Assembly (NCBI GenBank): GCA_022844265.1
Contig: JALHMA010000009.1
Location: 1-40,501 of the forward strand
Direction of reading: 5' to 3'
DNA from: Saprospiraceae bacterium
GTDB lineage: Bacteria; Bacteroidota; Bacteroidia; Chitinophagales; Saprospiraceae
Length of the DNA: 40,501 nucleotides
The notes under the pieces are model-generated. The model was not told where the DNA came from and did no database searches. It saw only the letters and a list, made by a program, of their open reading frames with translations. How positions within the stretch are numbered: position 1 is the first letter of the stretch; every line of letters begins with the position of its first letter. The position numbers and the translations under genes were made by a program. This document shows positions 1,504 to 37,572 of this stretch, in pieces.

Positions 1504-1602
1504 GAATGTTGAGAATGTTGAGGGTTGAGAATGTTGAGGGTGGTAACTCAAGCCATGAGTTACCACCCTCAACATTCTCAACCCTCAACATTCTCAACAT
1601 TC
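1504..1602. repeat. perfect 47-bp intergenic palindrome, GTTGAGAAT family
   Basis: Arms 1504-1550 and 1556-1602 are exact reverse complements over 47 bases with a loop of only 5 bases. The outer arm is a tandem array of the degenerate word GTTGAGAAT/GTTGAGG. The inner core is GGTGGTAACTCA-AGCCA-TGAGTTACCACC. The same core recurs in part at 13079-13093 and 37290-37305. It lies between the lipoprotein stop and the peroxiredoxin promoter. There is no T tract after the stem as in a classical terminator. Confidence 0.9.
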
Positions 1603-1645
1603 AGTATCAACTGATTTATTTGGCAGAAAGCCGGCAAAAGTTCTC

Positions 1646-1653
1646 TAATTTTG
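1646..1653 (+). promoter_or_regulatory. candidate -7 element for the peroxiredoxin gene
   Basis: TAATTTTG matches the Bacteroidota -7 consensus TAnnTTTG. A TTTG lies at 1619-1622, leaving 23 bases, slightly longer than the usual spacer. The element is 44 bases before the start codon at 1698 and directly downstream of the palindrome, so the gene probably has its own promoter. Confidence 0.45.
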
Positions 1654-1697
1654 CCCCTTCAAATATCAGTTGATCTGTTCACGTACCGTTTCGTAAT

Positions 1698-2165
1698 ATG
1701 CTCCAGCCCGGCGACAAAGCCCCCGATTTTGCCCTTCGCTCCAGCGATAAGTCGCTGGTAAAACTCTCCGAACAGCGCGACCAAAATGTAGTGTTGTTGT
1801 TTTTCCCATTCGCTTTTACAGGGGTTTGTACCAAAGAGTTGTGCCAGATGCGCGACAGCATAGCCGAGTATGAAAAATTGGATGCCCGGATTCTTGCTGT
1901 TTCCGTGGACAGCCCGTATACCCTTGCTAAATGGAAAGAAGAGCAGGGTTTTAACTTTCCCTTGTTGTCCGATTTTAATAAAACGGTCAGTAAAAAATAC
2001 GATTCCATCTATAAAGAATTTGGCATGGGCCTGAAAGGCGTGTCAAAAAGATCAGCCTTTGTGATTGATAAACAAGGCATTGTGCGTTATGCGGAGGTGC
2101 TTGAAAACGCGGGTGAAATCCCCGATTTTAATGCCGTGAAACAAACCTTGCAATCAATCAACTAA
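1698..2165 (+). CDS. peroxiredoxin (AhpC/TSA family, Bcp/AhpE-like)
   Basis: 155 residues, the normal size for a small thioredoxin-fold peroxiredoxin. It reduces hydrogen peroxide and organic hydroperoxides in the cytoplasm through a sulfenic-acid intermediate. The start GDKAPDFAL is typical. The active-site segment FAFTGVCTKELC places the peroxidatic cysteine at about residue 44, with a second cysteine five residues later (about 49). The T-x-x-C pattern and the CxxxxC spacing are those of PrxQ/Bcp enzymes, while FAFTGVC resembles AhpE. No signal peptide is present. A TAATTTTG element precedes the gene, and clpS follows 21 bases after the stop, so read-through into clpS is plausible. The family call is firm; the subfamily is not settled. 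Confidence 0.9.
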   Translation: MLQPGDKAPDFALRSSDKSLVKLSEQRDQNVVLLFFPFAFTGVCTKELCQMRDSIAEYEKLDARILAVSVDSPYTLAKWKEEQGFNFPLLSDFNKTVSKKYDSIYKEFGMGLKGVSKRSAFVIDKQGIVRYAEVLENAGEIPDFNAVKQTLQSIN

Positions 2166-2186
2166 TCCTTTTTACTTATTCTACTT

Positions 2187-2516
2187 ATGGAGTCTGCGTT
2201 TCGTATTTCCAATTTTGATAAACCGCTTTGGGAAGAAGAGGAAGATGTGCTCGTCGAGGATGCTGTTGATACCGGCGATCCCGCTTATCTGATTGTCTAC
2301 AACGATGACCACAATTCTTTTGATTGGGTCATCGAATGTTTTATGACGGTGTTGAAGCATACTTCCGAACAATCCGAGCAGTTAGCCATGCTGATCCACT
2401 TCAAAGGAAAGGCAACCGTCAAAACCGGTACCCGACCCGAACTTATTCCCTTGTGCTCCGCCCTGCTCGACCGCGGCCTGTCGGCTGAAGTGGAAGGGGG
2501 GGAAGAGGAGGGGTGA
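2187..2516 (+). CDS. clpS: ATP-dependent Clp protease adaptor ClpS
   Basis: 109 residues. ClpS binds proteins with N-terminal Leu, Phe, Trp or Tyr and hands them to ClpAP/ClpCP for degradation. The family core is visible from about residue 33: YLIVYNDD (Asn39, Asp40, Asp41 line the N-degron pocket in characterised ClpS), a helix, and IHFKGKATV with the pocket histidine at about 71. The position equivalent to the gating Met40 of E. coli ClpS appears to be Phe45 here (NDDHNSF), which could change which N-terminal residues fit. The acidic N-terminal tail (WEEEEDVLVEDAVD) is a typical ClpA-engaging extension. The next gene is aat, which makes such N-degrons, so the pair forms one pathway. The intervening gap is a hairpin. 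Confidence 0.92.
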   Translation: MESAFRISNFDKPLWEEEEDVLVEDAVDTGDPAYLIVYNDDHNSFDWVIECFMTVLKHTSEQSEQLAMLIHFKGKATVKTGTRPELIPLCSALLDRGLSAEVEGGEEEG

Positions 2517-2632
2517 TTTTTGTTATTGGTTATTAGTTATTGGTTATTCGTGTGGTGACCTTTGGCTAAAGTTGTTAACCAAGCTAAAGGTTACCACACC
2601 AATAACCAATAACCAATAACCAATAACAAAAA
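2517..2632. repeat. 51-bp intergenic palindrome between clpS and aat, TTATTGG family
   Basis: Arms 2517-2567 and 2582-2632 pair over 51 bases with four mismatches, two of which would be G-U pairs in RNA. The loop is 14 bases. The outer arm is a tandem of TTATTGG/TTATTAG heptamers next to T5/A5. The inner part carries GTGTGGTRACCTTTRGCT. The element starts at the clpS stop codon and ends three bases before the aat start, so the 3' arm covers the translation start region of aat. Confidence 0.9.
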
Positions 2633-2635
2633 AAA

Positions 2636-3370
2636 ATGCCCGTATACAGGTTGCCTGACGACGATTACACCCTTTTCCCCCACCACAGCGAGGCGGAATC
2701 GAATGGTTTGATTGCAGTCAGCCATGACCTGCACGAGCAGCGACTGATTGGCGCTTATGCCAACGGACTGTTTCCCTGGTTTGAGGAGAACGGATATTTT
2801 TACTGGTACACGCCCGATCCGCGTTGGTTGCTGAAGCCTGCTGACTTGCAAATCCATAAAAGTATGCGCTCCGTTTTTAACCAGCATAAATTTCGTTATA
2901 CCTTTGATGCGGCTTTTGAGCAGGTGATGCAGGCATGCGCCCAGACGCCTAGAAATGGCGGCGAAGCGGGTACCTGGATCACGACGGCGTTTGTAGACAG
3001 TTATGTTGCACTGCACCGGCAGGGTCTGGCGCATTCTGTGGAAGTCTGGCAGGGCGACACCCTGGTCGGCGGATTGTACGGGCTTTCGCTGGGGCGCATC
3101 TTTTTTGGGGAAAGTATGTTTGCAAGGGTAGCCAATGCTTCCAAAGCCGGTTTTATTACCCTGGTAAAAGCGCTGGAACGGGCCGGTTTCTGGCTGATAG
3201 ATTGTCAGCAGCAAACGGCGCATCTGGAGAGCCTGGGCGCCCGGGGTATCCAGCGGGAATTGTTCTATGAATACTTGCTCAAAAACGCTTACGAACGCAC
3301 TTTGCTTGGTCGCTGGCGCTGCTCGGCGGAGGGTGCATTAGAGGTAGATGCGTTAGATGAAACATATTAA
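2636..3370 (+). CDS. aat: leucyl/phenylalanyl-tRNA--protein transferase
   Basis: 244 residues, the usual length of Aat. The enzyme moves Leu or Phe from its tRNA to the N-terminus of proteins that begin with Lys or Arg, creating N-degrons recognised by ClpS. Characteristic segments are present in order: GLIAVSHDL, AYANGLFPWF, YTPDPRWLL, GTWITTAFVDSYVALHRQGLAHSVEVW, the GGLYGLSLGRIFFGESMF block that forms the GNAT-like core, and LIDCQQQTAHLESLGARGI near the C-terminus. The ATG at 2636 is chosen because the alignment begins at once (MPVYRLPDDD). It lies directly after the hairpin that fills the clpS-aat gap. Cytoplasmic. Confidence is high because the whole family pattern can be read. Confidence 0.95.
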   Translation: MPVYRLPDDDYTLFPHHSEAESNGLIAVSHDLHEQRLIGAYANGLFPWFEENGYFYWYTPDPRWLLKPADLQIHKSMRSVFNQHKFRYTFDAAFEQVMQACAQTPRNGGEAGTWITTAFVDSYVALHRQGLAHSVEVWQGDTLVGGLYGLSLGRIFFGESMFARVANASKAGFITLVKALERAGFWLIDCQQQTAHLESLGARGIQRELFYEYLLKNAYERTLLGRWRCSAEGALEVDALDETY

Positions 3371-3505
3371 TTTTTGCTAGTCAAGTATTTCATTTTCAAT
3401 AATTTAAATAAAAAAATAAAAGTAGAATTGCATATTTTATATCCGTATCAAGGCAATTTTTAGTATTTTGCCAGTTCCAAATAACCAGTTAAACGCCCAT
3501 AAATT

Positions 3506-5269
3506 ATGCAAAAAAAGTGGTTGAGCCTCCTGGCAGGCAGCGCAGCTTTGTGCGCGTTTTTTTCTTTTGAGGAGCCTGATCCCGCTCCATTGCCGGAGCC
3601 GGAAGTTGTGCTGGCAAGTTATCCGAAAGATTATTTCCAAAGTCCGGTGACCGCTTCCATCCGGCTTACGGGGACCTTTGGCGAATTGCGTTCCGATCAT
3701 TTTCACTCGGGTATTGATATAAAAAGCGCTACCGGCGGGGTAGGCCAGTCGGTGGTTGCAGCGGCCGACGGTTTTGTTGACCGGATCAGGGTGCAGGCCA
3801 GTGGTTACGGCAATGTGTTGTACATCAAACACCCCAACGGATATTCCACCGTTTATGCGCACCTGCTTCGCTTTTCCCCTGAAATAGAAAAATTTGTGCA
3901 CGCAAACCAGTACAAACGCGAGCAATTCGAGGTCGATTTACAACCTGCGGACGGACAATTTAAAGTAATAAAAGGCCAGGAAATAGGTAAATTAGGCAAT
4001 TCAGGCGGTTCAACCGGCCCGCACTTGCACTTTGAAATCCGCAATTCCACCAATGGTAAAGTCCTGAATCCGCAGCTGTTCAACCTGCCGATCCCTGATA
4101 AAGTGCCGCCGGAGATCAGGGATATGAAAGTGTATTTTTTGTCTGAAAACCGCGAAGTGATCACCAGTAAACCCTTGCCTTTGCAACGCGACAAAACCGG
4201 AAAAGCGGGCCTGGAAGGCGATACGGTGCGTTTTGGCGCCTGGCGGGTCGGTTTCGGGTTGAAAGCCTACGACCACATGTCCGGGTTTCGGAATGACAAC
4301 GGAATTTATGCCATTTCCCTGTATGCCGACGATAAACTGGCGTATGAGTGGCGCATGGGTGAACTCGATTTTGACGAAACACGCTACCACAATGCCCATA
4401 TCGACTACCCGGCCAAAAAACGATTTGGCGCCTGGTTTCACCGCTGCTTCGTGTTGCCCGGCAACCGCTTGAATAATTACGCCCTTACCGAAACGCTGGG
4501 CGCAGTGACTTTGTATAAAGACAAACCCGTCAAAATCAACCTGAAAGTAACCGATGCCGGCGGAAATACCTCGACCGTTAACTTCTGGGCCTTGCGCGAC
4601 GAAGTGATGGAAACACAATTTCTGCTGCCTTCTCAATACGATTTTAACTACCAGACCGAAAACAATATCGTGCAGGAAGATTTTCACCTGCACGTGCCGC
4701 AAGGCGCTTTGTACGAGTCGATTCGTTTTCAATACAAAACCTCGCCGAGCGACGACGCCGGGCAATATTCGCCCATGCATCACCTGCACGACACCCGTAC
4801 GCCGTTGCATAAATTCGTCGAAATTGGATTGAAACCATATAATTTGCCCGAGGAATTGCGCTCAAAAGCAGTTGTTGCATCGTGTGGGGAAGGCAGACCC
4901 GATAACTGCGGCGGTGAATGGAGCGGTGGTATGCTCAAAACCCGCGTGCGGAATTTCGGCGACTATTGTATCATGGCAGATACCGATCCCCCCCGCATTA
5001 TACCGGTTGTTTTTAGCGATGACATGCGCAAAAAAACCAGCATGGCCTTCCGTATCCGCGACAATTTTGCCGTCAGCGGCCGGGCAGACAAAATGAGCTA
5101 CCGGGGCACCGTGGACGGGCAATGGGTGCTGTTCGAATTCGACCAGAAACGCGAACGCCTCACCCATACCTTCGACGGTCGCATCGGCCCCGGCAAACAC
5201 AAACTGCTGCTGGTGGTGAAAGACGACCGGAACAATGAAGCGTTTTTTGAAGGGACGTTTTTGAAGTAG
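3506..5269 (+). CDS. M23 family zinc metallopeptidase
   Basis: 587 residues. The N-terminus is a short signal sequence (MQKKWLSLLAGSAALCAFFSF). The LytM/M23 peptidase core follows early, at about residues 60-185: HFHSGID gives the zinc ligands His67 and Asp71, YAHL gives His119, and GPHLHFEIRN gives His173/His175. All catalytic positions appear intact, so this should be an active Zn endopeptidase cleaving peptidoglycan cross-links or glycine-rich peptides in the periplasm. About 400 residues after the peptidase domain are beta-rich and of unrecognised type, as in many Bacteroidota M23 proteins, and may bind the wall or envelope. A long AT-rich gap (3371-3505) precedes it and holds a weak promoter-like GTATTTTGCC. 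A palindrome begins right at its stop codon. Confidence 0.9.
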   Translation: MQKKWLSLLAGSAALCAFFSFEEPDPAPLPEPEVVLASYPKDYFQSPVTASIRLTGTFGELRSDHFHSGIDIKSATGGVGQSVVAAADGFVDRIRVQASGYGNVLYIKHPNGYSTVYAHLLRFSPEIEKFVHANQYKREQFEVDLQPADGQFKVIKGQEIGKLGNSGGSTGPHLHFEIRNSTNGKVLNPQLFNLPIPDKVPPEIRDMKVYFLSENREVITSKPLPLQRDKTGKAGLEGDTVRFGAWRVGFGLKAYDHMSGFRNDNGIYAISLYADDKLAYEWRMGELDFDETRYHNAHIDYPAKKRFGAWFHRCFVLPGNRLNNYALTETLGAVTLYKDKPVKINLKVTDAGGNTSTVNFWALRDEVMETQFLLPSQYDFNYQTENNIVQEDFHLHVPQGALYESIRFQYKTSPSDDAGQYSPMHHLHDTRTPLHKFVEIGLKPYNLPEELRSKAVVASCGEGRPDNCGGEWSGGMLKTRVRNFGDYCIMADTDPPRIIPVVFSDDMRKKTSMAFRIRDNFAVSGRADKMSYRGTVDGQWVLFEFDQKRERLTHTFDGRIGPGKHKLLLVVKDDRNNEAFFEGTFLK

Positions 5270-5402
5270 TTTTTTACCACAACAGGCACATAGATTTCAC
5301 ACATAGAACACATAGTGTAGAGTACGCTAAAAACTATGTGTTCTATGTGTGAAATCTATGTGTCTATTGTGGTAAAAAACCTGTGCCTATTGTGGTAAAA
5401 AA
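5270..5402. repeat. 46-bp intergenic palindrome with a second 3' arm
   Basis: Arms 5270-5315 and 5334-5379 pair over 46 bases with two mismatches and an 18-base loop. The sequence is built from CACATAGAA-type words flanked by TTTTTTACCACAA. A second, shorter copy of the outer 3' arm (GTGCCTATTGTGGTAAAA) follows at 5383-5400 and fits the 5' arm as well as the first copy does, so two alternative stems are possible. Unlike the other palindromes here, the 5' arm is A/C rich and the 3' arm G/T rich. The element starts at the stop of the M23 gene. Confidence 0.88.
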
Positions 5403-5421
5403 AATGTCTTGCCTGTTTCCG

Positions 5422-5429
5422 TACCTTTG
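5422..5429 (+). promoter_or_regulatory. candidate -7 element for the M16-like gene
   Basis: TACCTTTG fits TAnnTTTG. It lies only nine bases before the ATG at 5438, so a transcript from it would have almost no leader. No well-placed upstream TTG was seen. Weak evidence. Confidence 0.3.
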
Positions 5430-5437
5430 CCCCCCTT

Positions 5438-6715: not shown

Positions 6716-6777
6716 CGGCTAAAGAAATACAATTTATTTAGCGCAATATTTTGGGAAAAAATACTCAGAAACGTGTG

Positions 6778-6785
6778 TAGTTTTG
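6778..6785 (+). promoter_or_regulatory. candidate -7 element for mreB
   Basis: TAGTTTTG matches TAnnTTTG. A TTTG at 6750-6753 lies 24 bases upstream. This predicts an mreB leader of about 140 bases (6793-6933), in which no other gene is seen. Confidence 0.45.
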
Positions 6786-6933
6786 CACGATTTTTAATCC
6801 GGGATGTTTGAGCGGGCGCGAATGGCCTGAAAATGCCTTGTTATCCATGAGATAATGCAATCAGGACAGTTCATCGATTTTCGCAATCCCGTCCAAAAAC
6901 CTTTATACCTCACTTTTAAACGAACCTAATACA

Positions 6934-7971: not shown

Positions 7972-7975
7972 TTTA

Positions 7976-8141
7976 GTTATTAGTTATTAGTTATTGGTTA
8001 TTGGTGTGGAAATGTTTGGTCTATGAAAATGATGCTGCCAGAAATTGTTAGATGTAACTTAATGGAGTAGCAATTTTTCTTTGTTCGCAATTTCCAGCCT
8101 GAAAAACGATAACCAATAACTAATAACCAATAACTAATAAC
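7976..8141. repeat. intergenic inverted repeat between mreB and mreC, TTATTGG family
   Basis: Arms 7976-8005 and 8112-8141 pair over 30 bases with two mismatches. Both are tandem TTATTAG/TTATTGG heptamers. The 106-base centre holds GCAATTTCCAGCCTGAAAA (about 8088-8106), whose reverse complement recurs with one base less at about 11684-11702 in the element after mrdA. The element begins four bases after the mreB stop and ends seven bases before the mreC start. Confidence 0.85.
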
Positions 8142-8148
8142 CATCACA

Positions 8149-9561: not shown

Positions 9562-9648
9562 CGAGTATTTGAAGATTTGAATATTCGAGTATCTGACTGA
9601 TAACGAATCATTTATAATCAAATCCTCGCATACTCGCATACTCAAATA
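9562..9648. repeat. imperfect inverted repeat between mreD and mrdA
   Basis: CGAGTATTTGAAGATTTGAA at about 9562-9581 is matched, with about four mismatches, by the reverse complement of sequence at about 9616-9636. Both arms are made of degenerate CGAGTAT/ACTCGCAT words. The 3' arm ends a few bases before the mrdA start codon at 9649. The match is weaker than at the other loci. Confidence 0.5.
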
Positions 9649-11655
9649 ATGGTACAGTCAGGTCTCGATCGGCAACGCAATATTCAGATAGTGCTCATGG
9701 TGTGCGCTGCGGCACTTATATTGAAGGCAGCACAGTTGCAATTGTTCGACGACTCCTTTCGCCGCCGGGCCGATGCCACCACGATTGAAAAACTGACGGT
9801 TTACCCACCCCGGGGGCTTGTTTTTGACCGCAACGGCAAACTCATTGTCAACAATGAGGCCACCTACGATCTCATGGTCACTTACAACCAGGTGAATTTT
9901 AAAAACATGGATGTGGCTAAATTCTGCCGTATCCTGGGCATTAAGGAATCTGAGTATAAGCAAAACCTGAGCAAAGACTGGAAAAGTGGCAGGTTTTCCC
10001 GCTCCGTTCCCTTTGTATTTCTGAAAAAACTCAGCATCGAAACATACGCCCGTTTACAGGAAAGCCTGTATGAATTTCCCGGGTTTTTCGTGCAGGTGCG
10101 CAATATCCGGGGCTATCCTTTCCATACCGGCGCACACGTACTGGGTTATATCAATGAAGTGGATCCGCGCGACATCGAGCGCGGCGGCGGCGTGTACGAG
10201 TCCGGCGACTACATCGGTGCTGCCGGACTGGAATCGGAATACGAACCCTATCTGCGGGGCGAAAAAGGCACAACTTCCCTTTTGAAGGACAACCTCGGCC
10301 GTATAGTCGGCAAATACAAAGGTGGGCAGTACGACTCCGCTGCTGTGGCAGGACACGATCTGATTTCTTCTATCGACATCGACCTGCAATCCTACGGCGA
10401 ATTCCTGATGCAGAATAAAACAGGCAGCGTCGTGGCCATCGATCCGAAAACAGGCCAGATTCTGGCCATGATCAGCGGCCCTACCTACGATCCCAACCTG
10501 CTCACCATGACCCAGAACAGGGGGCAGGTTTTCAGCGAGCTGCTGACCGATCCGCTGAAACCGTTTTTTGACCGGACGGTGATGGCCAAATACCCGCCGG
10601 GTTCTATTTTTAAAACGCTGATTACCCTGACCGGTTTGCAGGAAGGAACCCTCAACCCCGACAGAGGGCAGAGTTGCAACGGCGGTTATTTTTATGCAGG
10701 CCGTTTGTACAAATGCCACCGCCATTCGGGCGTAGGCAATGCCGTGGACGCCCTGGCTTTCTCCTGCAATACCTACTATTTTACCCAGTTTCGCGCTATT
10801 GTCGACAAGTTTGGTTATTCCAACCCGCATCAGGGACTGGACGTTTTTGCCAAATACTGCGAAGAATTCGGTCTGGGCACCCGATTGGGGATTGATTACC
10901 CGAACGAAAGCGCCGGAAATATTCCCAATTCCGCCTACTACGACAAAATTTATCCGCGCAACCTCGGTAGCTGGCATTCTCCGACCATCATGTCGCTGGG
11001 CATCGGGCAGGGCGAAATACAAATGACTACCCTGCAAATGGCCAACCTGGCCGCCTGCATAGCCAACAAAGGCTACTGGTATCCGCCGCATTTGGCCAAA
11101 CAGTTCCGCGACGGCACGCCCATTCCAAAAAGATTCTACGAAAAACACATCGTCAATATAGAAGAACGCTACTTCGAACTCGTGCAGGAAGGAATGGCGG
11201 AGTGTGTCAACCGCGGTACCGCGCGTATCGCACAGGTGCCAGGCATCCAGGTCTGCGGCAAAACCGGCACCAGCCAAAACCCGCATGGCGATGACCACTC
11301 GGTTTTCTTTGCGTTTGCCCCGAAGGAAAATCCTAAAATCGCAATTGCCGTGTATGTAGAAAATGCAGGCTGGGGCGCCTCCTTCGCAGCGCCTATCGCC
11401 GGATTGATGATTGAAAAACTACTGAACGACACCATTGCCACCGAGCGCCTCCCGGTGCAGGATCGGATGACAAAAGCCAACCTGATTGAAAAATTCCTGC
11501 AAAACAAGGCGGAAGCCAAAATCCGTTCGGCTGTGCCCGCTCCCAAACGCGACTCCCTGCCTGATCCGAAGCAGGTGCCCAGCGATGTGCCGGAAGGAAC
11601 GACGACGACGAGTGTGACGACGCCTGCCCGGGGTGTTGGGAGGCAGAAAAAGTAG
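9649..11655 (+). CDS. mrdA: penicillin-binding protein 2 (elongasome transpeptidase)
   Basis: 668 residues, class B PBP. It cross-links peptidoglycan during side-wall growth. One membrane anchor lies at about residues 13-30. A dimerisation/linker domain follows with PPRGLVFDRNG, then the transpeptidase domain with all three motifs: SIFK (Ser319, Lys322), SCN (Ser372, Asn374) and KTGT (538-541). IGQGEIQMTTLQMA is also typical of PBP2. The tail after about residue 610 is Lys/Pro/Thr rich and probably disordered. It follows mreBCD as in other Bacteroidota. rodA, the partner glycosyltransferase that usually comes next, is not present in the following 460 bases or the next gene. Confidence 0.95.
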   Translation: MVQSGLDRQRNIQIVLMVCAAALILKAAQLQLFDDSFRRRADATTIEKLTVYPPRGLVFDRNGKLIVNNEATYDLMVTYNQVNFKNMDVAKFCRILGIKESEYKQNLSKDWKSGRFSRSVPFVFLKKLSIETYARLQESLYEFPGFFVQVRNIRGYPFHTGAHVLGYINEVDPRDIERGGGVYESGDYIGAAGLESEYEPYLRGEKGTTSLLKDNLGRIVGKYKGGQYDSAAVAGHDLISSIDIDLQSYGEFLMQNKTGSVVAIDPKTGQILAMISGPTYDPNLLTMTQNRGQVFSELLTDPLKPFFDRTVMAKYPPGSIFKTLITLTGLQEGTLNPDRGQSCNGGYFYAGRLYKCHRHSGVGNAVDALAFSCNTYYFTQFRAIVDKFGYSNPHQGLDVFAKYCEEFGLGTRLGIDYPNESAGNIPNSAYYDKIYPRNLGSWHSPTIMSLGIGQGEIQMTTLQMANLAACIANKGYWYPPHLAKQFRDGTPIPKRFYEKHIVNIEERYFELVQEGMAECVNRGTARIAQVPGIQVCGKTGTSQNPHGDDHSVFFAFAPKENPKIAIAVYVENAGWGASFAAPIAGLMIEKLLNDTIATERLPVQDRMTKANLIEKFLQNKAEAKIRSAVPAPKRDSLPDPKQVPSDVPEGTTTTSVTTPARGVGRQKK

Positions 11656-11765
11656 TTATCGGTTATTAGTTATCAGTTATCCATTTTCAGGCTGGAATTG
11701 CTAATGAAGGGTACATTTCATTTCCCCATGTCGAACCAGATAACGGATAACAGGTAACTGATAAC
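11655..11765. repeat. inverted repeat after mrdA, TTATTGG family
   Basis: Arms 11655-11681 and 11739-11765 pair over 27 bases with about five mismatches and consist of GTTATCG/GTTATTA heptamers. The centre holds TTTTCAGGCTGGAATTGC, shared in inverted orientation with the mreB-mreC element. A further right-arm copy, CCAATAACTAATAACGGATA at 12090-12109, also complements the left arm with about three mismatches, so an outer pairing could enclose the whole 11655-12110 gap. Confidence 0.75.
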
Positions 11766-11846
11766 AATTGGCCGTGCGTTCTTGTTAACAGCAATTTTTG
11801 CTTCAACAGGTATTCTGTTCCATTTCTCCGAAGCCCAAGCGCAGGG

Positions 11847-12018
11847 CCGCAGCAGTGTCTCCGACCTGCTGCTAACATAAAGCAGGATGATTCGACAAAA
11901 CTTATATTTGTACTCAAAACAGTGTATGGCCGTTCCCGGCGCCACTGGCCTTTTGGATTGATTGATCTGGGATGGCATTGTGCTGTACGTTAGCAGCAGG
12001 TCGGAGACACTACTGCGG
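11847..12018. repeat. 30-bp inverted repeat with a 112-base centre
   Basis: Arms 11847-11876 and 11989-12018 match over 30 bases with one mismatch (GTTAGCAGCAGGTCGGAGAC reads inwards from the right arm). Weaker pairing extends outwards through a GCGCTGGGTTTGGG-type stretch to about 12034. The 112-base centre has no open reading frame and no match I recognise. The base composition differs from the heptamer palindromes, so this may be a separate small mobile or structural element. Apart from this and the repeats on either side, I see nothing in the gap 11656-12119. Confidence 0.8.
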
Positions 12019-12119
12019 CGCTGGGTTTGGGTTTAGGTGGAAAATGGCTGAAAGTCTGCTGCGGCAAAATTGATTGTCAATACTAAAAACCAATAACTAA
12101 TAACGGATAGCCCGATAGT

Positions 12120-13028: not shown

Positions 13029-13037
13029 TTCAGAAGG

Positions 13038-13139
13038 GTTTGATGGTTGAGAATGTTGAGGGTTGAGATTGTTGAGGGCCATGAGTTGCCACCCTCAACC
13101 TCTAAACATTCTCAACCCTCAACATTCAAACCATCAAAC
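13038..13139. repeat. imperfect palindrome, GTTGAGAAT family with damaged core
   Basis: Left arm about 13038-13079 (GTTTGATGGTTGAGAATG and on) pairs imperfectly with 13087-13139. The centre reads GGCCATGAGTTGCCACCC, the right half of the core seen whole at 1539-1567 (AGCCATGAGTTACCACCC). The left half of that core is missing here, so this looks like a deleted copy of the same element. CCATCAAAC words continue to just before the next start codon. Confidence 0.8.
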
Positions 13140-13159
13140 AAACCATCAAACAAACAATC

Positions 13160-13819
13160 ATGAAAATAAAAGCAATTATCACCGGCGTAACCGGTATGGT
13201 CGGCGAAGGCCTACTGCATGAATGCCTGCAAAACGATTTGGTAGAACAGGTGCTCGTACTTGGCAGGCGGCCATACGGCATGACACATCCGAAACTGAAG
13301 GAAATCGTACACGGCGACCTGTACGATCTATCTGCTGTGGAAGAACAACTGAAAGGTTATAACACCTGTTTTTTCTGCCTGGGGACTACCTCCGTCGGGA
13401 AAAGTGAGGAAGAATTTACGAAGGTGACCTACACGCTCACGATGCATGTGGCTACTACTTTGAGTCGCCAAAACCCGGACATGACGTTTTGCTATATCTC
13501 CGGCTCGGGTACCGACAGCAGCGAAAAAGGCCGGGTCATGTGGGCGCGCGTGAAAGGCAAAACCGAGAATGACCTGATGAAATTGCCATTCAAAAAGGTT
13601 TACAATTTCCGTCCGGGGTACATGCAGCCGACCAAAGGGCTGAAAAACACCTTGCCTTATTACAAATACGTATCCTGGCTGTATCCTTTCCTTCGATTAA
13701 CAATGCCTGGTTTTGTGACGACCCTGCGCGAACTGGCTCTGGCCATGATCCATGCCGCCGCCCATGGCTATTCCAAATCTGTGCTGGAGGTGCGGGACAT
13801 CGTTGCAAAAGCGAAATAG
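13160..13819 (+). CDS. NAD(P)-binding Rossmann-fold protein (atypical SDR, TIP30-like)
   Basis: 219 residues. The N-terminus is a dinucleotide-binding fold: IITGVTGMVGEGLL has the GxxGxxG pattern (Gly9, Gly12, Gly15). VLVLGRRP follows as the second strand, where the arginines suggest a preference for NADP. CFFCLGTTSVGKSEEEF is typical of the HTATIP2/TIP30-like group of atypical short-chain dehydrogenases. In the usual YxxxK catalytic position the sequence reads MWARVKGKTE, with Trp in place of Tyr, so classical dehydrogenase activity is doubtful and a binding or epimerase-like role is possible. FNFRPGYMQPT matches the end of the fold (here NFRPGYMQPT). Cytoplasmic. No operon partner: a palindrome follows, and the next gene is convergent. 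Confidence 0.82.
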   Translation: MKIKAIITGVTGMVGEGLLHECLQNDLVEQVLVLGRRPYGMTHPKLKEIVHGDLYDLSAVEEQLKGYNTCFFCLGTTSVGKSEEEFTKVTYTLTMHVATTLSRQNPDMTFCYISGSGTDSSEKGRVMWARVKGKTENDLMKLPFKKVYNFRPGYMQPTKGLKNTLPYYKYVSWLYPFLRLTMPGFVTTLRELALAMIHAAAHGYSKSVLEVRDIVAKAK

Positions 13820-13846
13820 TTATTGGTTATCGGTTATTCGTTATTC

Positions 13847-13931
13847 GTGGTGGTAATGGGCCATCTGTACAATTGTCAGGCATTCCTTATCGTGTAGCCC
13901 AACAATTGTACAGATGGCCCATTACCACCAC
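13847..13931. terminator. 30-bp perfect palindrome between convergent genes
   Basis: Arms 13847-13876 and 13902-13931 are exact reverse complements over 30 bases with a 25-base loop. The arm begins GTGGTGGTAATGGGCC, similar to the GGTGGTAAC core of other palindromes here. Left of it, 13819-13846 carries TTATTGG-type heptamers with no right-hand partner. It lies between genes that converge (stops at 13819 and 13936), where a bidirectional terminator would be expected. Confidence 0.8.
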
Positions 13932-13935
13932 TAAT

Positions 13936-14496: not shown

Positions 14497-14515
14497 TTTT
14501 TATGTGTTTGGTGTT

Positions 14516-14591
14516 TCGTTTTTCGTGTTTGGAGGTTCGTAAAGGTCGATTTGTACCGTTTTTAACCCTAAACACCAAACACGATAAACGA
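14516..14591. repeat. inverted repeat between two minus-strand genes
   Basis: TCGTTTTTCGTGTTTGG at 14516-14532 pairs with CCAAACACGATAAACGA at 14575-14591 with one mismatch. The arms are tandem GTGTTTGGTGTTTCG-type words running from 14503 to 14597. The element fills the gap between the stop of the SRPBCC gene (14596) and the start of the PNPOx-like gene (14496). Confidence 0.7.
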
Positions 14592-14595
14592 AAAA

Positions 14596-15024
14596 CTATT
14601 GTTCCAATAAATCCTTCAATCCTTTCAGCACCATTCCCCAGTTCTGCACGGAATGAATCTTGTTTTCCAGACTGCTGATATTGCTCTGGGTGATAGTGAG
14701 GGTTGTCCGCTCGCCTTTCGGCTGCACGCGGTAGGTAATGACCTGGTAGTTTTCAAGGGCATCGGCATTGCCCGACCAGGAACTCCAGTAATTGTATTGC
14801 AGCATTTTTTCCGATACAAATTTCAATACGGTGCCTTTGTCTTCATAGGGTTTGCCATCCCATTCTCCCCTGAAAAATACAGGACTGCCGGGCTCCCAGG
14901 AGGTATCCAGGTTAGAACCGAAAAAGTATTTTTTGACCTGGGCCGGATCGGTCAGTCCTTTCCAGACGTCGGCGACAGGAGCGTTAATAGTCATGGTTTT
15001 TTTGGCAGTGAATCCTTTGCTCAT
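14596..15024 (-). CDS. SRPBCC/AHSA1-like protein
   Basis: 142 residues from the ATG at 15024 (MSKGFTAKKTMTINAP). A longer reading from 15087 adds 21 residues with no family similarity and was rejected. The fold is START/Bet v1-like: TINAPVADVWKGLTDPAQVKKYFFG, EPGSPVFFRGEWDGKPYEDKGTVL, and a C-terminal helix SVQNWGMVLKGLKDLLEQ (these blocks are listed in order, each shortened where needed). Members of this group bind hydrophobic ligands in a deep cavity or act as stress-related cofactors; no substrate can be named. It lies 87 bases downstream of the WYL regulator start-to-stop order on the same strand, so the regulator may control it. Confidence 0.85.
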   Translation of the reverse strand: MSKGFTAKKTMTINAPVADVWKGLTDPAQVKKYFFGSNLDTSWEPGSPVFFRGEWDGKPYEDKGTVLKFVSEKMLQYNYWSSWSGNADALENYQVITYRVQPKGERTTLTITQSNISSLENKIHSVQNWGMVLKGLKDLLEQ

Positions 15025-16302: not shown

Positions 16303-16394
16303 TTTTTTGGGATTTTAAACATGAGTCATCCCGAATTTTACAGAGATTCTATTCGCCCAGATTTTTACTTTACCAATAATAAAGTGAGCCGCCC

Positions 16395-16603
16395 GGGCCG
16401 TCGTTGGCGTCCTCGGGGTTGTGTCAAAAGGGGCAAAGTAGAATAAGACGCCAAATTATACTTGGTTTTTCCGGCTCGAAACTTCCCGAAAGTTTAAAAC
16501 TTTCGGGAAGTTGGAAGTAACGCGAAATTAAATTTTACACTAGAACTATGGCTTAAGTAAAATACGACTTTTGACACAACTCCGAGGACGCCAACGACGG
16601 CCC
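16395..16603. repeat. nested inverted repeats (outer 35 bp, inner perfect 16 bp)
   Basis: The outer arms 16395-16430 and 16569-16603 pair over about 35 bases with one or two mismatches (GGGCCGTCGTTGGCGTCCTC reads inwards). Inside lies a separate perfect hairpin, 16480-16495 with 16497-16512 (AACTTCCCGAAAGTTT). There is no open reading frame in the 210-base element. The stem-within-loop layout resembles that at 37425-37572 and a small non-autonomous mobile element. The rest of the gap 16303-16660 holds only a lone heptamer arm. Confidence 0.8.
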
Positions 16604-16622
16604 GAATGCTTGATTATGAACA

Positions 16623-24845: not shown

Positions 24846-27143
24846 ATGACCAAAAAGAAAAAAACGGGGAGCCACAAACTGACTGCCCAACAATTACAAA
24901 TTGAAATCCTGAGATTCCTGCTGGCACACCCCCACAAAAATTTCTCTCCCCGCCAGATTACCGAACAAATCCGCGTAGACAACAACAAAGATTCCGCCGA
25001 ACATGCCCTGCGGCAGTTGGTGGAAGCGGGTTCTGTTGCCGAAATTTCCGAAAACAAGTTTGGCGTCGCCCTCGACCGGCTGACGATTAAAAGCCCGGAG
25101 CCTGAAGTGAAGGAAACGCATGCGCCGCCCGCACGGGCAGAGCGCGTGGAGCCTTTGCTCAAAAGACAACAGCCGGAGAAAAAGCCGGCAGGACGCAAAA
25201 TCATTGAAGGCAGGGTCGACATGACCCGCACCGGGGCGGCATACATCGTAAGCGAACTGATGGATACGGATGTATATATTCCATCCAAGCATATGAACAG
25301 CGCCCTGAATGGCGACATTGTAAAGGTACTGCTGTTCTCCGCGCCTCCACGCCGCAGCGGCGGCCAGCCTGTGCGTAAACCCGAAGGAGAAATTATTGAA
25401 ATCCTCAAACGCGCCAATGAATTTTTTATCGGTACCCTGCGCAAAAGCCGCAAATACGGCCTTTTCCTGCCCGATAATCCGAACATGCCGGTGGATGTTT
25501 ATATCCCACTCGATGCCTGCGGGGAAGCCCGCGACGGCGAAAAAGTGGTCATTCGCATCACCGACTGGCAAGAAGGTAAAGGGCGTGTACCCATCGGCAA
25601 AGTCACCCAGGTGCTGGGCGATGTAGGCGGCAATAATTTTGAAATGCAAAAAATCCTGATTAACCAGGGTTTTGAACTGTCGCATTCCGAAGAAGCAGAA
25701 GCAGAAGCAGACCGGATTCCGGACACGATTTCAGAACAGGAAATTGCCCTGCGCCGCGACTTCCGCGACATATTGACCTTTACTATCGACCCGGAAGACG
25801 CCAAAGACTTCGACGACGCCCTGAGTATCCGGGAACTGGAAGGCGGCAACCTCGAAATCGGTGTACACATCGCCGATGTCACGCATTACCTCAAACCGGA
25901 TTCCGAACTCGACCGCGCAGCCTATCAACGCAGCACTTCGGTGTACCTCGTCGACCGCGTGTGCCCCATGCTGCCGGAAAAACTGTCCAACCACTTGTGT
26001 TCCCTCGTGCCACACCAGGACCGGCTGACTTTTTCAGCCGTTTTTGAATTCAGTCCCAAAGGCAAAGTGCTGAAACGCTGGTTCGGAAAAACAATCATTC
26101 ACTCCGCACACCGCTTCGCATACGAACAGGCGCAAACCATCCTGGAAAACAAGGCGCACGAGGAACTCAGCGAGCTGCCCATTTTCCCGCAGTTGGAATG
26201 GGCTGTCAAAACCCTCGACCGCATTGCCAAGGTGATGCGAAAAGAGCGGCATAAAAACGGCGCCATCGGTTTTGAAACCGATGAAGTGCGTTTCAAACTT
26301 GCGCCCGATGGTACGCCGCTGGAAGCTTATGTCAAAGATCGCAAGGAAGCACACCTGCTGATCGAGGATTTTATGCTCCTGGCCAACAAGGAAGTGGCGC
26401 TCTTTATGGACAACAAAGGCAAAGACCAGCAGGAAATACCCTTCGTTTATCGAATTCACGACCTGCCTGACATGTCGAAAGTGGCAGATTTTGCGCGTTT
26501 TGCAGCCGAACTGGGCCATCCGCTGAAAGTGGATACGCCGAGACAAATTGCGCAATCCTTCAACGACCTCATGCTGGCTGCCCGCAAGGATGATCGACTG
26601 AAACTGCTCGAACCCCTGGCCATCCGTACCATGGCAAAGGCTGTTTATTCCACCAATAATATAGGTCACTACGGCCTGGGCTTTTCCCATTACAGCCATT
26701 TTACTTCTCCCATTCGCCGCTACTCCGACGTTTTGGCGCACCGTATTCTGGAGCGCAACCTCGATGGACGCACGTACCGGATTGATAAAAGCAAACTGGA
26801 AGAACAGTGCAAACACGTCAGTAACCAGGAACGCAAGGCTGCTGACGCCGAACGGGAAAGTATCAAATACAAACAGGCCGAATTTATCCGCAGCCGCATC
26901 GGCGAAGTTTTTGAAGGGATCATCAGCGGTATCATCGATCGCGGATTTTTTGTAGAACTGCCCGAATCAAAAGCCGAAGGGCTGGTTGATTTCAGGTACC
27001 TGGACGATACCTATATAGTAGAAGAAGGCAACCTGCGGGTCACCGGACGGCGTTACAAACGACAGTTCAAAATGGGCGACCGCGTCAATGTGATCGTGAC
27101 GGCGGTGGATTTGCAAAAAAGGCAGATTGAGATGGAGCTTTCT

Positions 27144-27149
<6 letters not shown>
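24846..27149 (+). CDS. rnr: ribonuclease R
   Basis: 767 residues. RNase R is a processive 3'-5' exoribonuclease that degrades structured RNA, rRNA and mRNA in the cytoplasm. Domain order: an N-terminal winged helix (about 15-75), a Pro/Lys-rich linker, cold-shock-type OB domains (about 115-260), the RNB catalytic domain (about 300-630) and a C-terminal S1 domain (about 680-765, VFEGIISGIIDRGFFVELPE, shortened). The active-site segment reads TFTIDPEDAKDFDDALS, with the metal-binding aspartates at about 316, 321, 323 and 324. The basic N-terminal MTKKKK is short. A structured-RNA degrading enzyme beside so many palindromic intergenic elements is a suggestive but unproven coincidence. Confidence 0.95.
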
Positions 27150-28617
<1,468 letters not shown>

Positions 28618-29247: not shown

Positions 29248-29272
29248 ACGGCTTTTAAAAAAGGCCTCCTGT

Positions 29273-29428
29273 AAACAACGGGGCTGCCTCAAAAGGTTGA
29301 TAAGGTTGATTAAGGTTGATAAGGTTGATGTTAGCACCCCAAAATGAGGGGAATTACTTCATTGAGTGGCTATCAACCTCATCAACCTTAATCAACCTTA
29401 TCAACCTGGTGAGACAGCCCCGTTGTTT
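29273..29428. repeat. 57-bp intergenic palindrome, GTTGATAAG family
   Basis: Arms 29273-29329 and 29372-29428 pair over 57 bases with four mismatches and a 42-base loop. From outside in: AAACAACGGGGCTGYCTC, then tandem GTTGATAAG-type words. The loop holds ATTGAGTGGCT near its right end. The GGCTGYCT outer block and GAGTGGCT are shared with the element at 33667-33822. Apart from this and the possible promoter, the 29046-29621 gap shows only AT-rich sequence. Confidence 0.92.
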
Positions 29429-29621
29429 ATCAATGCCCGCCGTAAATGTGTTGCTAAATTTTTTTTATATAAAAAACAAGGCAACTGATATGGGATTATT
29501 TTAAAAATCCTTAATTTCATCGGCGAAAATTTTCACACCCTGACCTGATGACGGCGGGGTATTTTTCACCATTACGCACGGAATTTTTACGACCGGACAG
29601 ACAAAATTAATTGAACAGAAG

Positions 29622-33641: not shown

Positions 33642-33666
33642 CCGCCTGATAAATATTCCTCTCGTT

Positions 33667-33822
33667 AGGCTGTCTTTATGGGTTGATAAAGGTTGATGAG
33701 GGTTGATAAAAGTTGATATTTGCTGCTCGAATGATGAAAATCGCATTATAGAGTGGCTGTCATCAACCTTTATCAACCCTCATCAACTTTTATTAACCCT
33801 CATCAACCCCTAAAGACAGCCT
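33667..33822. repeat. intergenic palindrome with unequal arms, GTTGATAAG family
   Basis: Left arm 33667-33717 (51 bases) and right arm 33762-33822 (61 bases). The right arm holds one extra ten-base word. Outer block AGGCTGTCTTTA and its complement are exact apart from one base. The loop ends with TATAGAGTGGCTGTC, like the loop at 29330-29371. A run of T follows after AGACAGCCTA. It occupies most of the gap between mltD and the LytTR gene. Confidence 0.9.
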
Positions 33823-33890
33823 ATTTTTTTCGCAAAAAAAGAAGAATTTTGCGTCTCTCAAATCCGTATCCAAAAACAAGACATACACAT

Positions 33891-34661: not shown

Positions 34662-34701
34662 ACAGATTTGTCAAAAAGGGATATTTTAATTTGATTTTAA
34701 G

Positions 34702-34730
34702 TTGCCCCACTGGGCTTCCATATACTTTTG
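34702..34730 (+). promoter_or_regulatory. candidate promoter of the outer-membrane/haloperoxidase operon
   Basis: TTG at 34702-34704 and TACTTTTG at 34723-34730 are separated by 18 bases, the best fit to the Bacteroidota consensus in this window. The element lies 33 bases before the start codon at 34764. A LytTR regulator is encoded just upstream, but no clear LytTR direct repeat was seen. Confidence 0.5.
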
Positions 34731-34763
34731 TCCGACAAAATTATTTATCGGAAACTCTTGTAT

Positions 34764-35687: not shown

Positions 35688-35695
35688 ACACTGAT

Positions 35696-37234
35696 ATGCA
35701 ACACACACTACGCAACTTACTACTGCTCGCGCTGCTGCTTGGTTTCAATCAGTGCGATAAAACCCCTGCCAACGCGGTGCTGGAACCGTACGATGAAACG
35801 TCGCTGGAGAACAACGGCGGCGCCTGGAAAACCTACGTGCTGGCCAATGGCAGTGAACTTTCCGTGGCAGCCCCGGAAGCCGCAGGTTCGGCTACTTATT
35901 CGGCCGAATTGGCCGATCTGAAGAACAAAATGGCCGCCGCTACCGGCGAACAAAAAGATGCCGCCCGTTTCTGGGGTAGCAATGCCGTATTGCGCTGGCA
36001 CGAAATTGCCCGCGAACTGGCCGCCGAATACAATGCTGCGCCGAAAAGCAACCCGGACGGCACCTATTCCGCTCCGGATGCCAATAATCCGACAGCCTAT
36101 CCCCGTTTTCCATTTGCCAATCCGCCTTACGCAGCCCGCGCACTGGCACTGCTCGCAGTAGCGCAATACGACGCGCTGGTAACCACCTGGAATTATAAAT
36201 TTCAATACAATCGCCTGGCGCCTTACAAAAACGATGCGAGCATTCAGCCGCTCATCCCGGCCAACGACCTGCCTTCTTACCCTTCCGAAGATGCCGTGAT
36301 TGCCTATGCTTCCAGTGAAGTACTTAAATTCCTGTTTCCGGGTGAAAAGGAATTTTTAAGCGGCCGCGCGGAAGAACACACGGAAAGCCGCCTCTGGGCC
36401 GGCGCCAATGTGCAAAGCGACCTCGATGCCGGGGAAGCGCTGGGTAAATTGGTGGCAGAACGTATCATCGCCTATGCCAAAGCAGATAAAATGGGCATGG
36501 CCAACAACCAGCCTGGCGTGGCGCAATTGCGCGCCGACGCAACTGCACGGGGTATCACGACACAATGGACCAGTCTCGACCTGCCCGCACGCCCGCCCAT
36601 GTTGCCGTTTTTCTTCAATGTAAAAACCTGGAATTTCGACCAGGCGACTATGATTGCCAACCGCCCTGCGCCGCCTCCGGCCGTGGGAAGCGCTGAATTT
36701 GAAACAGCCATCAATGAACTGCGCGATATGTCGAAAAACCGCACCCGCGAACAATTCCGGATCGCCAGTTTCTGGGCCGACGGCACTGGCACTTACACGC
36801 CGCCGGGGCACTGGAACCGCAAAGCGGCCGAATTGATCTATGATAAACAATTGAACGAACTGCGCTCGGCCAGGGTGATGGCCCTTGTCAATACCGCCAT
36901 GCACGATGCGGGCGTAGCCTGCTGGGATACCAAATACTTCTATTTGTATCCGCGTCCTACGGAGATGGACCGGACGATAGAAACCAGTACCGGTATTCCG
37001 AATTTTCCGGCGTATACTTCGGGGCACTCCACTTTCTCCGGCGCCGGCGCTGAAGTGTTGTCTTATTTGTTTCCCGACAAGTCTGCCGAATTGCAAAATA
37101 TGGCAAAAGAAGCGTCCGAATCGCGTATTTACGGCTGTATTCACTACCGTTTCGACTCGGAAGTGGGCCTGACTTCCGGCAAACAAGTGGGTCAGTACGC
37201 TGTACAGCGCGCCCAGACAGATGGGGGAGAATAA
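35696..37234 (+). CDS. vanadium-dependent haloperoxidase / PAP2-superfamily lipoprotein
   Basis: 512 residues. A signal ends GFNQCDKT (Cys20), so a lipoprotein is likely. The C-terminal half has the full phosphate/vanadate site: KYFYLYPRP (Lys413, Arg420), PAYTSGHSTFSGAG (Ser442, Gly443, His444) and SRIYGCIHYRFD (Arg477, His483). Members either oxidise halides with a vanadate cofactor or act as acid phosphatases; sequence alone does not decide. The N-terminal half repeats the same plan in degenerate form: NYKFQYNR (Lys168, Arg173), PSYPSEDAVIAYASSEVLKF (Ser197, but Glu-Asp in place of Gly-His) and ESRLWAGANVQSD (Arg232, Asn238 in place of His). So the first copy has lost both histidines. It is the second gene of an operon with an outer-membrane protein. 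Confidence 0.87.
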   Translation: MQHTLRNLLLLALLLGFNQCDKTPANAVLEPYDETSLENNGGAWKTYVLANGSELSVAAPEAAGSATYSAELADLKNKMAAATGEQKDAARFWGSNAVLRWHEIARELAAEYNAAPKSNPDGTYSAPDANNPTAYPRFPFANPPYAARALALLAVAQYDALVTTWNYKFQYNRLAPYKNDASIQPLIPANDLPSYPSEDAVIAYASSEVLKFLFPGEKEFLSGRAEEHTESRLWAGANVQSDLDAGEALGKLVAERIIAYAKADKMGMANNQPGVAQLRADATARGITTQWTSLDLPARPPMLPFFFNVKTWNFDQATMIANRPAPPPAVGSAEFETAINELRDMSKNRTREQFRIASFWADGTGTYTPPGHWNRKAAELIYDKQLNELRSARVMALVNTAMHDAGVACWDTKYFYLYPRPTEMDRTIETSTGIPNFPAYTSGHSTFSGAGAEVLSYLFPDKSAELQNMAKEASESRIYGCIHYRFDSEVGLTSGKQVGQYAVQRAQTDGGE

Positions 37235-37310
37235 AATGGTTGGATGGTTGGCAAGGGTTTGAGGTGGTTTGACGGTTTGAAAAGGTTTGATGGTTTGAGG
37301 TGGTAACTAA
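37235..37310. repeat. lone GGTTTGA-type arm with half core
   Basis: After the haloperoxidase stop, tandem GGTTTGA-type heptamers (GGTTTGAGGTGGTTTGAC and on) lead into GGTGGTAACTAAAGCC at 37290-37305, the left half of the core at 1539-1555. No right-hand arm follows, so this looks like a truncated element. Confidence 0.7.
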
Positions 37311-37424
37311 AGCCTTCAGTAAAATCCGGGATGAATGTAAATCAATAAGTTGCATCGCTTTTTGCCCTTTTCAATTTTGCCTTTTTACTTTTTGTACAAA
37401 ACCTAATTTAGGTTGGACGCTATG

Positions 37425-37572
37425 GCCGCGTAGCGGCATAAGGTCGGTAGTAACGAATGCCATACGTGTTTACAAGGTGCATAGCACCGAAACATTATCT
37501 ATATGTTACGGTGCTATGCACCTTTGTACGTTGTTGTTTGGTTGCTCTACCGACCTTATGCCGCTACGCGGC
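37425..37572. repeat. nested inverted repeats with sub-hairpins in each arm
   Basis: Outer arms 37425-37450 (GCCGCGTAGCGGCATAAGGT and on) and 37547-37572 are exact over 26 bases. Each arm begins with GCCGC-GTA-GCGGC, a small hairpin in its own right. An inner stem, 37476-37489 with 37509-37522 (GGTGCATAGCACCG), is exact over 14 bases and again contains a local palindrome. No reading frame is present. The layout resembles a REP/MITE-type element. The rest of the 37235-37877 gap holds the lone arm and AT-rich sequence with no gene. Confidence 0.85.

What the first reader, a model, noticed from the sequence alone, without database searches (positions are those of the whole stretch)
1504..37572. 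Intergenic gaps repeatedly filled by inverted repeats built of 7-10 base tandem words
At least nine gaps (near 1504, 2517, 5270, 7976, 11655, 13038, 14516, 29273, 33667) hold palindromes whose arms are degenerate tandem words. The words differ by locus, but recurring types link several loci: TTATTGG/TTATTAG, GTTGAGAAT, GTTGATAAG. In all but the 5270 element the first arm is G/T rich and the second A/C rich. They often run exactly from stop to start codon. I know of no described element class with this mix of microsatellite arms, inner cores and gap-filling placement.
Basis: partly seen in the sequence, partly recalled or inferred. Interest (0 to 1): 0.82.

Follow-up and report, generated by a model that had tools for sequence, protein, structure and literature searches.

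The report
Mobile hairpins paired with IVP genes
The gaps between genes in this bacterium are filled by small spreading DNA hairpins built of short repeated words, and the same kind of word array brackets genes for a widespread protein of unknown function, which suggests an overlooked class of mobile DNA and a job for that protein.

Summary
The sampled part of this Saprospiraceae genome has about 0.24 strong palindromes per kb (a shuffle gave none). Nearly all lie between genes, typically a few bases after a stop codon, with G/T-rich tandem words in the 5' arm. By eye they form at least ten families (word plus core), and related species often carry different families in the same gap. In the family tested, both arms change together; no G.U excess points to RNA-structure selection.

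Of 100 IVP loci examined (of 210 in the genus), 82 are enclosed by inverted arms, mostly of 7-8 base words; control genes 4 of 115 and 2 of 68. In plasmids, mainly cyanobacterial, it is 20 of 22, against 0 of 48 neighbouring genes. IVP similarity tracks arm words (Mantel r 0.52, 0 of 2000 permutations).

Best reading: a mobile hairpin system of IVP-bearing and many empty copies, laid out like REP/RAYT and akin to rRNA intervening sequences, but between protein genes. The linkage is strong; that IVP moves the elements is inferred; the chemistry is unknown.

The parts
1504..1602 (.). palindrome, words GTTGAGAATG, core GGTGGTAACTCA-AGCCA-TGAGTTACCACC
   Evidence: arms 100% complementary; same core within 500 bp of an IVP gene in relative G030 (L220)
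2517..2632 (.). palindrome, words TTATTGG/TTATTAG, core GTGTGGTGACC; other elements in the same gap in four relatives
5269..5380 (.). palindrome, words CACATAG (reverse polarity), core GTAGAGTACNCTA
7973..8143 (.). facing TTATTAG arrays with a long interior
9562..9648 (.). degenerate element, words GAGTATTTGAAGA; the whole gap is 9 bp in G034 and G027
11653..11767 (.). facing TTATC/GATAAC arrays with a CAGGCTGGAATT core half
13038..13160 (.). palindrome, words GTTGAGG / GTTTGATG
13815..13935 (.). palindrome with GGTGGTAATGGGCCATCTGTAC core, TTATTCG words on one side only
14504..14596 (.). palindrome, words GTGTTTCG
27143..27168 (.). left arm of the IVP-bearing element, words TGAATGA, overlapping the stop of the 24846-27149 gene
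27249..27551 (-). 23S_rRNA_IVP (PF05635) coding stretch enclosed by the arms; no in-frame ATG directly upstream in this copy
   Evidence: E 1e-21; E 2.7e-22; frames
27604..27647 (.). right arm of the IVP-bearing element, words TTCATCA, reaching the stop of the minus-strand gene 27646-28617
29272..29429 (.). GTTGATAAG element in the apex of an older hairpin (AAACAACGGGG..CCCCGTTGTTT) in the recQ leader
   Evidence: the hairpin without the element in G034, G027, G030, G015
33666..33823 (.). GTTGATAA element inside a hairpin AGGCTGTCT..AGACAGCCT followed by a T run; orthologous in G030; another family at this place in G034 and G027
37236..37310 (.). half element, words GGTTTGATG with core GAGGTGGTAACTAAAGCC

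Best explanation
The palindromes are members of a mobile-element system whose protein partner is the 23S_rRNA_IVP family (PF05635, four-helix bundle). A family has its own 7-10 base word and core and, in this genome or a relative, often its own IVP gene. IVP-bearing copies have word-arms, or whole palindromes, on both sides of the IVP gene. The far more numerous empty copies keep arms and core and lack the gene. New copies settle in gaps just after stop codons and sometimes in the apex of an existing hairpin. Shown: enclosure of IVP genes, word-protein co-variation, dispersed copies with one core, differing content of the same gap between species, joint change of the two arms in one family. 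Inferred: that IVP acts on the words and drives spread; that tandem words grow by slippage and arms are matched by template switching within the hairpin. Unknown: the strand-breaking and joining chemistry.
For: Enclosure by inverted arms: 82 of 100 genus IVP loci at score 18 or more, 77 of these 82 arms periodic (period 7 in 43, 8 in 21); 38 of the first 40 at score 14. Small control genes by the same rule: at score 14, 6 of 115 and 2 of 68; at score 18, 4 of 115 and 2 of 68; five of these eight were scanned and are thioredoxin, GNAT (two), YqeY and Fer2. Plasmids: 20 of 22 loci at score 16, in four phyla, against 0 of 48 neighbouring genes. Co-variation of IVP identity with arm words over 3,251 pairs without flank similarity: r 0.52, none of 2,000 permutations reached it. 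Same-genome IVP copies at different loci with the same words: L288/L290 92%, L283/L286 89%. A 106-bp stretch beside an IVP gene (L194) is 91.5% identical to an empty copy. One site, five species: an IVP element in two, empty elements with three different cores in the others. Joint change: 101 identical departures in both arms of 16 copies of one family, against a mean of 32 and a maximum of 64 in 1,000 exchanges of arms.
Against: The 100 loci are 100 of 210 genus matches, mainly the better scoring; a further one met in a sampled stretch (L180) is not enclosed. 18 of the 100 and 23 of 30 loci from the wider phylum are not enclosed at the score used; in a gapped test 18 of the 30 exceed 95% of mismatched flank pairs, none the 99% point. 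Empty copies do not simply follow IVP: G018, G021, G006, G008, G007 and G011, with 1 to 11 IVP genes, showed no periodic palindrome in 439 kb together. Shared cores near IVP genes are weak evidence: 6 of 11 IVP loci of this genome but also 34 of 115 control genes have a listed core within 500 bp, and only 3 of 89 loci of other genomes; four of ten core families have none. A word-match test of empty copies to IVP arms did not discriminate (69 of 74 against 47 of 74 for a reversed control). No target-site duplication was recognised. No catalytic motif of PF05635 is known to me. The window's IVP copy has no in-frame ATG directly upstream. No movement was observed.
Confidence: 0.65

Rival explanations
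1. IVP is a passenger. The palindromes are moved by an unidentified host or transposon enzyme and the IVP gene rides along, perhaps shielding hairpin RNA.
For: S23p proteins 'have no known function' (PMC4990558, introduction); six IVP-bearing genomes showed no periodic palindrome in the stretches sampled; four of ten core families have no IVP-bearing copy in the loci seen; DDE transposases were not searched.
Against: IVP clades track arm words across unlinked loci; among enclosed control genes no family stands out (thioredoxin, GNAT twice, YqeY, Fer2); the link recurs in other phyla.
Confidence: 0.22
2. The palindromes are functional RNA hairpins (terminators, attenuators or mRNA stabilisers) kept by selection on the transcript; words and cores drift freely.
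For: Strong 3'-end bias and avoidance of divergent gaps (2.76 convergent, 1.33 tandem, 0.39 divergent per kb of gap); two window elements sit in older leader or terminator-like hairpins.
Against: Mismatches in arms read on the coding strand: G.U 93 against A.C 91 (G000) and 29 against 34 (G034), no excess of wobble pairs; T-rich tail in 4 of 111 and 1 of 41; dispersed copies with one core; absent from some sister gaps.
Confidence: 0.07
3. REP/RAYT-like elements moved by Y1 (HUH) transposases.
For: Size, palindromy, extragenic placement and a helper gene flanked by copies are alike.
Against: Only three Y1 matches in the genome and none directly flanked by these elements; read by eye, word arrays lie about 0.7 and 1.4 kb away in two of the three loci, beyond other sequence.
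Confidence: 0.03
4. In-place growth: tandem words expand by slippage and become palindromic by template switching, without mobility; IVP genes merely tolerate such sites.
For: Concerted arms; varying word numbers at an orthologous site (window and G030).
Against: The same cores at many loci; different families at one site in related species; IVP duplicates at different loci with the same words.
Confidence: 0.03

Closest known systems
23S rRNA intervening sequences (IVS) with an S23p ORF, e.g. Coxiella burnetii (PMC4990558; passages, introduction)
   Same: Hairpin element with terminal complementary arms; loop ORF of the S23p family; [quoted passage not shown] the paper reports tandem heptamers (GACAGAT), varying in number, before the ORF.
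   Different: Those lie in rRNA helices; these lie between protein genes, in many empty copies, in many word families per genome, with word-protein co-variation. That S23p and PF05635 are one family rests on the Pfam name and the shared X. campestris structure.
REP/BIME palindromes with RAYT (PMC3733652, passages)
   Same: Short extragenic palindromes, many copies, helper gene flanked by copies.
   Different: No Y1 transposase is directly flanked by them; arms are built of tandem 7-10 base words; the helper is a four-helix bundle.
Cyanobacterial and Beggiatoaceae heptamer repeats (STRR, name recalled; TAACTGA repeats, PMC4679880: abstract, sections 9 and 10, and a find)
   Same: Degenerate intergenic heptamer arrays near stops and starts, patchy across Cyanobacteria, Bacteroidetes and Beggiatoaceae.
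   Different: Described there mainly as direct repeats, and a find for 'four helix', 'intervening' and 'S23' gave nothing; here inverted pairs enclose an IVP gene in 20 of 22 plasmid loci. That the published arrays are the same elements was not tested.
BrickBuilt MITE of Porphyromonas gingivalis (PMC4596501, abstract and passages)
   Same: Intergenic element with inverted ends and tandem units.
   Different: 23-nt direct units in the interior, IS-like ends; a find for 'four helix' and 'intervening' gave nothing.

Membership tests
REP/RAYT | dedicated Y1 HUH transposase gene flanked by the palindromes | tested here: not met
   three PF01797 matches, none directly beside a word palindrome (read by eye)
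REP/RAYT | GTAG or CGTC tag at the stem foot | not tested
   no scan for the tag was made
rRNA intervening sequence (IVS) | stem from complementary ends, loop ORF of PF05635 in some copies | tested here: met
rRNA intervening sequence (IVS) | located in rRNA helices | tested here: not met
   between protein genes; no rRNA in the window; the 23S genes of this genome were not examined
rRNA intervening sequence (IVS) | extended stem-loop replaces the loop of an older helix | tested here: met
   recQ leader: one clear site only
rRNA intervening sequence (IVS) | excised from RNA by RNase III | not testable with these tools
   needs transcript mapping
MITE of a DDE insertion sequence | target-site duplication | tested here: inconclusive
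   none recognised by eye, ends not sharply defined
MITE of a DDE insertion sequence | ends shared with an autonomous DDE element | not tested
   no DDE search was made
intrinsic terminator | T-rich tail after the stem | tested here: not met
   4 of 111 and 1 of 41; the host hairpin around 33666 has one
retroelement with an Avd-like partner (recalled) | reverse transcriptase in the genome | tested here: not met
   no RVT_1 match in G000 (95.39% complete)

The most novel reading that the evidence does not exclude
PF05635 four-helix-bundle proteins are word-specific enzymes or essential cofactors of a DNA transposition pathway unrelated to known transposases, which inserts hairpins at gene ends and hairpin tips. 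rRNA intervening sequences and cyanobacterial heptamer arrays are outposts of the same element class, found in at least four phyla.
Probability: 0.43. Interest if true: 0.95.

Novelty: new variant of a known kind. Interest (0 to 1): 0.88.

Why it matters
PF05635 is widespread (a match in 116 of 148 sampled genomes of the phylum) and the paper read on it gives it no known function. Tandem heptamer arrays in cyanobacteria and sulfur bacteria, and rRNA intervening sequences, have been separate puzzles. If one system explains all three, a large share of intergenic repeats in such genomes gets an origin and the protein gets a testable role. It also warns against reading 'four helix bundle' genes inside cas, restriction or DISARM loci as defence genes.

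Tried and rejected
RAYT partner: searched and not supported. Reverse transcriptase route: no RVT_1 in G000. Selection on RNA structure: no G.U excess. Rfam: no match in the window at gathering score. Assigning empty copies to IVP families by word cosine: dropped, since a reversed control matched often (69 of 74 against 47 of 74 in G000, 26 of 28 against 22 of 28 in G034). Shared cores near IVP genes: first read as good support (no control); the control added (34 of 115 genes) makes it weak, except where the core lies in the enclosing arms themselves. The family B part of the joint-change test used a lax pattern (62 places, many not elements; 17 against a mean of 12, maximum 23) and does not support joint change. 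Own-arm scores are diluted for short patterns that also hit coding sequence. Stop codons are more frequent when arms are read inward (3.38 against 1.30 per 30 nt in G000), which may follow from lying at gene ends; not used as proof. A first phylum sample was mostly negative (7 of 30), so a gapped test was added (18 of 30). Literature: ten searches; none of the rows listed named a link of IVP genes to tandem-word palindromes, but several searches matched hundreds to thousands of papers of which 12-25 were listed, and the library lacks most subscription journals.
Full report
What is there. The nine gaps hold inverted repeats or facing arrays of tandem words. Against one dinucleotide shuffle, 112 repeats of score 20 or more were seen where the shuffle gave none. 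The nearest named relatives are Saprospiraceae and other Bacteroidota MAGs. In 822,957 bp sampled there were 194 such palindromes, about 0.24 per kb, which extrapolates to some 1,400 in 6.05 Mb; in relative G034 there were 79 in 438,000 bp. They sort by eye into at least ten families, each with a word and a core. By a permutation test at p 0.01, 104 of the 194 have tandem periodicity of 6-12 in the left arm; the rest are degenerate, nested or of other kinds.

Placement. 190 of 194 are less than 20% covered by called genes. Density per kb of gap is 2.76 in convergent, 1.33 in tandem and 0.39 in divergent gaps (G034: 1.63, 1.08, 0.25). In tandem gaps the median distance to the upstream stop is 9 bp (n=111), and 88 of 111 lie closer to the stop than to the start. 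In 53 convergent gaps with an element the DNA left beside it has a median of 23 bp, against a length-weighted median of 596 bp for the 32 without one. Genes were called by a simple codon-usage script, so single starts may be off.

Evolution of the arms. In 16 copies of the GTTGAT family, 101 positions depart from the consensus identically in both arms, against a mean of 32 and a maximum of 64 when arms are exchanged between copies. A second family was not tested cleanly. Mismatches show no G.U excess on the coding strand (93 against 91 A.C; 29 against 34 in G034). A DNA-level process such as template switching in the hairpin explains this; selection on the transcript does not.

Turnover between species. 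Orthologous gaps in G034, G027, G030 and G015 (recQ 82-87% identical in DNA) often hold such palindromes too, in many cases of other families, and some are empty: the 9539 gap is 9 bp in G034 and G027, 22 bp in G015, 110 bp in the window and 97 bp in G030, the last two with different elements. In the recQ leader all four relatives have a plain hairpin, AACGGGG..CCCCGTT with a short loop; the window has a GTTGATAAG element in place of its tip. A published account of rRNA intervening sequences describes the same: a small tetraloop replaced by an extended stem-loop (PMC4990558, introduction). Within the genus, a GTTGAT-type pattern is abundant in G000 and six of the 36 other species searched, with 80 to 219 hits, and has at most 20 in the rest.

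The partner gene. The window's palindrome at 27143-27647 encloses a PF05635 gene. The genome has 11 PF05635 matches and the 42 genus genomes searched have 210 (summed). In the first test 38 of 40 loci (11 here, 29 from other genomes) were enclosed by inverted arms at score 14, against 6 of 115 and 2 of 68 small control genes. With 60 more loci taken from the listing, mainly its better-scoring part, 82 of 100 were enclosed at score 18 (31 of the first 40 and 51 of the next 60); of 84 loci with at least 600 bp on each side 70 were. At score 18 the controls are 4 of 115 and 2 of 68. Of the 82 arms, 77 are periodic, mostly at 7 or 8, and 73 are G/T-rich on the left against 4 reversed. Some IVP genes have a complete palindrome on each side (L226, L248; L195 has one and is cut by the contig end on the other side), a layout like RAYT genes with REPs. 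One further IVP gene, in the sampled stretch L180 of G034, is not enclosed.

Specificity. IVP protein identity correlates with arm-word similarity across 3,251 pairs of loci without similar flanks (r 0.52; best of 2,000 permutations 0.09). By identity class, the share of pairs with similar words is 1% below 25% identity, 28% at 45-60%, 43% at 60-80% and 6 of 7 pairs above 80%. The nearest protein neighbour shares words in 46 of 82 loci, so 36 do not. Two genomes hold pairs of IVP copies 89-92% identical, on different contigs without similar flanks, with the same words.

Empty and IVP-bearing copies. A 106-bp stretch beside the IVP gene of L194 is 91.5% identical to an empty copy in L013. Of ten core families of this genome, six (A, C, D, G, H, K) recur within 500 bp of an IVP gene among the 100 loci; B, E, F and I do not. 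This is weak by itself: 6 of 11 IVP loci of this genome but also 34 of 115 control genes have a listed core that close, and 3 of 89 loci of other genomes do. The core of window element 1504 is found beside an IVP gene of G030 (L220). At the site of the window's IVP element, G030 has the orthologous IVP element with more words in one arm, while G034, G027 and G015 have empty elements with three different cores, two of them with similar GTGAGAG words.

Breadth. PF05635 matches 116 of 148 sampled genomes of the phylum. Among the 30 loci returned, chosen by score, 7 are enclosed at score 16 and 18 exceed 95% of mismatched flank pairs in a gapped test, where 1.5 are expected; none exceeds the 99% point, which related loci push up. 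In plasmids, the window's IVP finds 22 records, all fetched: 20 of 22 are enclosed at score 16, against 0 of 48 neighbouring genes from the 12 longer stretches. The best period is 7 in all 20, though the arm of L377 is hardly periodic. The two misses are Treponema (score 14) and Euhalothece (score 24 with 8-base seeds). The 20 are of Cyanobacteria, Bacteroidota, Bacillota and Chloroflexota; 17 are cyanobacterial and several Nostoc and all three Planktothrix records share a context, so independent cases are fewer.

Dose. Three genomes without IVP had 2 palindromes and no periodic one in 224 kb. But six genomes with 1 to 11 IVP genes (G018, G021, G006, G008, G007, G011) also had no periodic one in 439 kb together. 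IVP is thus not sufficient for many empty copies, and the test does not show that it is necessary.

Mechanism. Shown are the enclosure, the co-variation, the dispersal, the turnover and, for one family, the joint change of arms. I infer that IVP recognises the repeated words, perhaps several at once as the two related crystal structures have five chains each (2rld, 2gsc), and enables copying into gene ends and hairpin tips. The chemistry is open: no RVT_1, no linked Y1 transposase, DDE enzymes not searched, and near-invariant Gln and Glu residues of unknown role.

Novelty. The closest kind is the rRNA intervening sequence with S23p. The intergenic, many-family, mostly empty form with word-protein co-variation was not named in the rows listed by the ten literature searches. 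I file it as a new variant of a known but unexplained kind; if IVP proves to be the mover, it would be a new kind.

Noticed in passing
L331 1483-1830, L380 4983-5339, L332 1477-1845: IVP genes with word arms lie between or next to cas1 and cas2 on cyanobacterial plasmids; a figure legend of PMC10910872 lists 23S rRNA IVP (one passage seen), which may reflect insertion, not function.
   Followed up: partly
L374 5001-5297; L384 and L385 4980-5339; L333 1498-1866; L382 4998-5366; L330 and L379: IVP elements also sit inside a type I restriction operon (hsdS-hsdR), beside DISARM/BREX-like genes, in DUF1156-Swt1 pairs (Gloeocapsa and Chlorohelix alike) and next to xisH/xisI genes.
   Followed up: no
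window 16394-16604, 37425-37572, 11785-12080: Other long palindromes without tandem words; the 37425 type recurs in L028 and L196, so separate repeat families coexist.
   Followed up: no
window 27249-27560: The window's IVP copy has no in-frame ATG directly upstream; an ATG lies in another frame just before a run of A.
   Followed up: no
L021 14704-14994 and 16364-16648; L014 18151-18345: Nested palindromes: one family inside the apex of another or of itself, up to three layers by eye.
   Followed up: partly
L018 12099-12304: A TTATTG-type element interrupts one arm of a CACATAG element, so insertion is not always at the apex.
   Followed up: no
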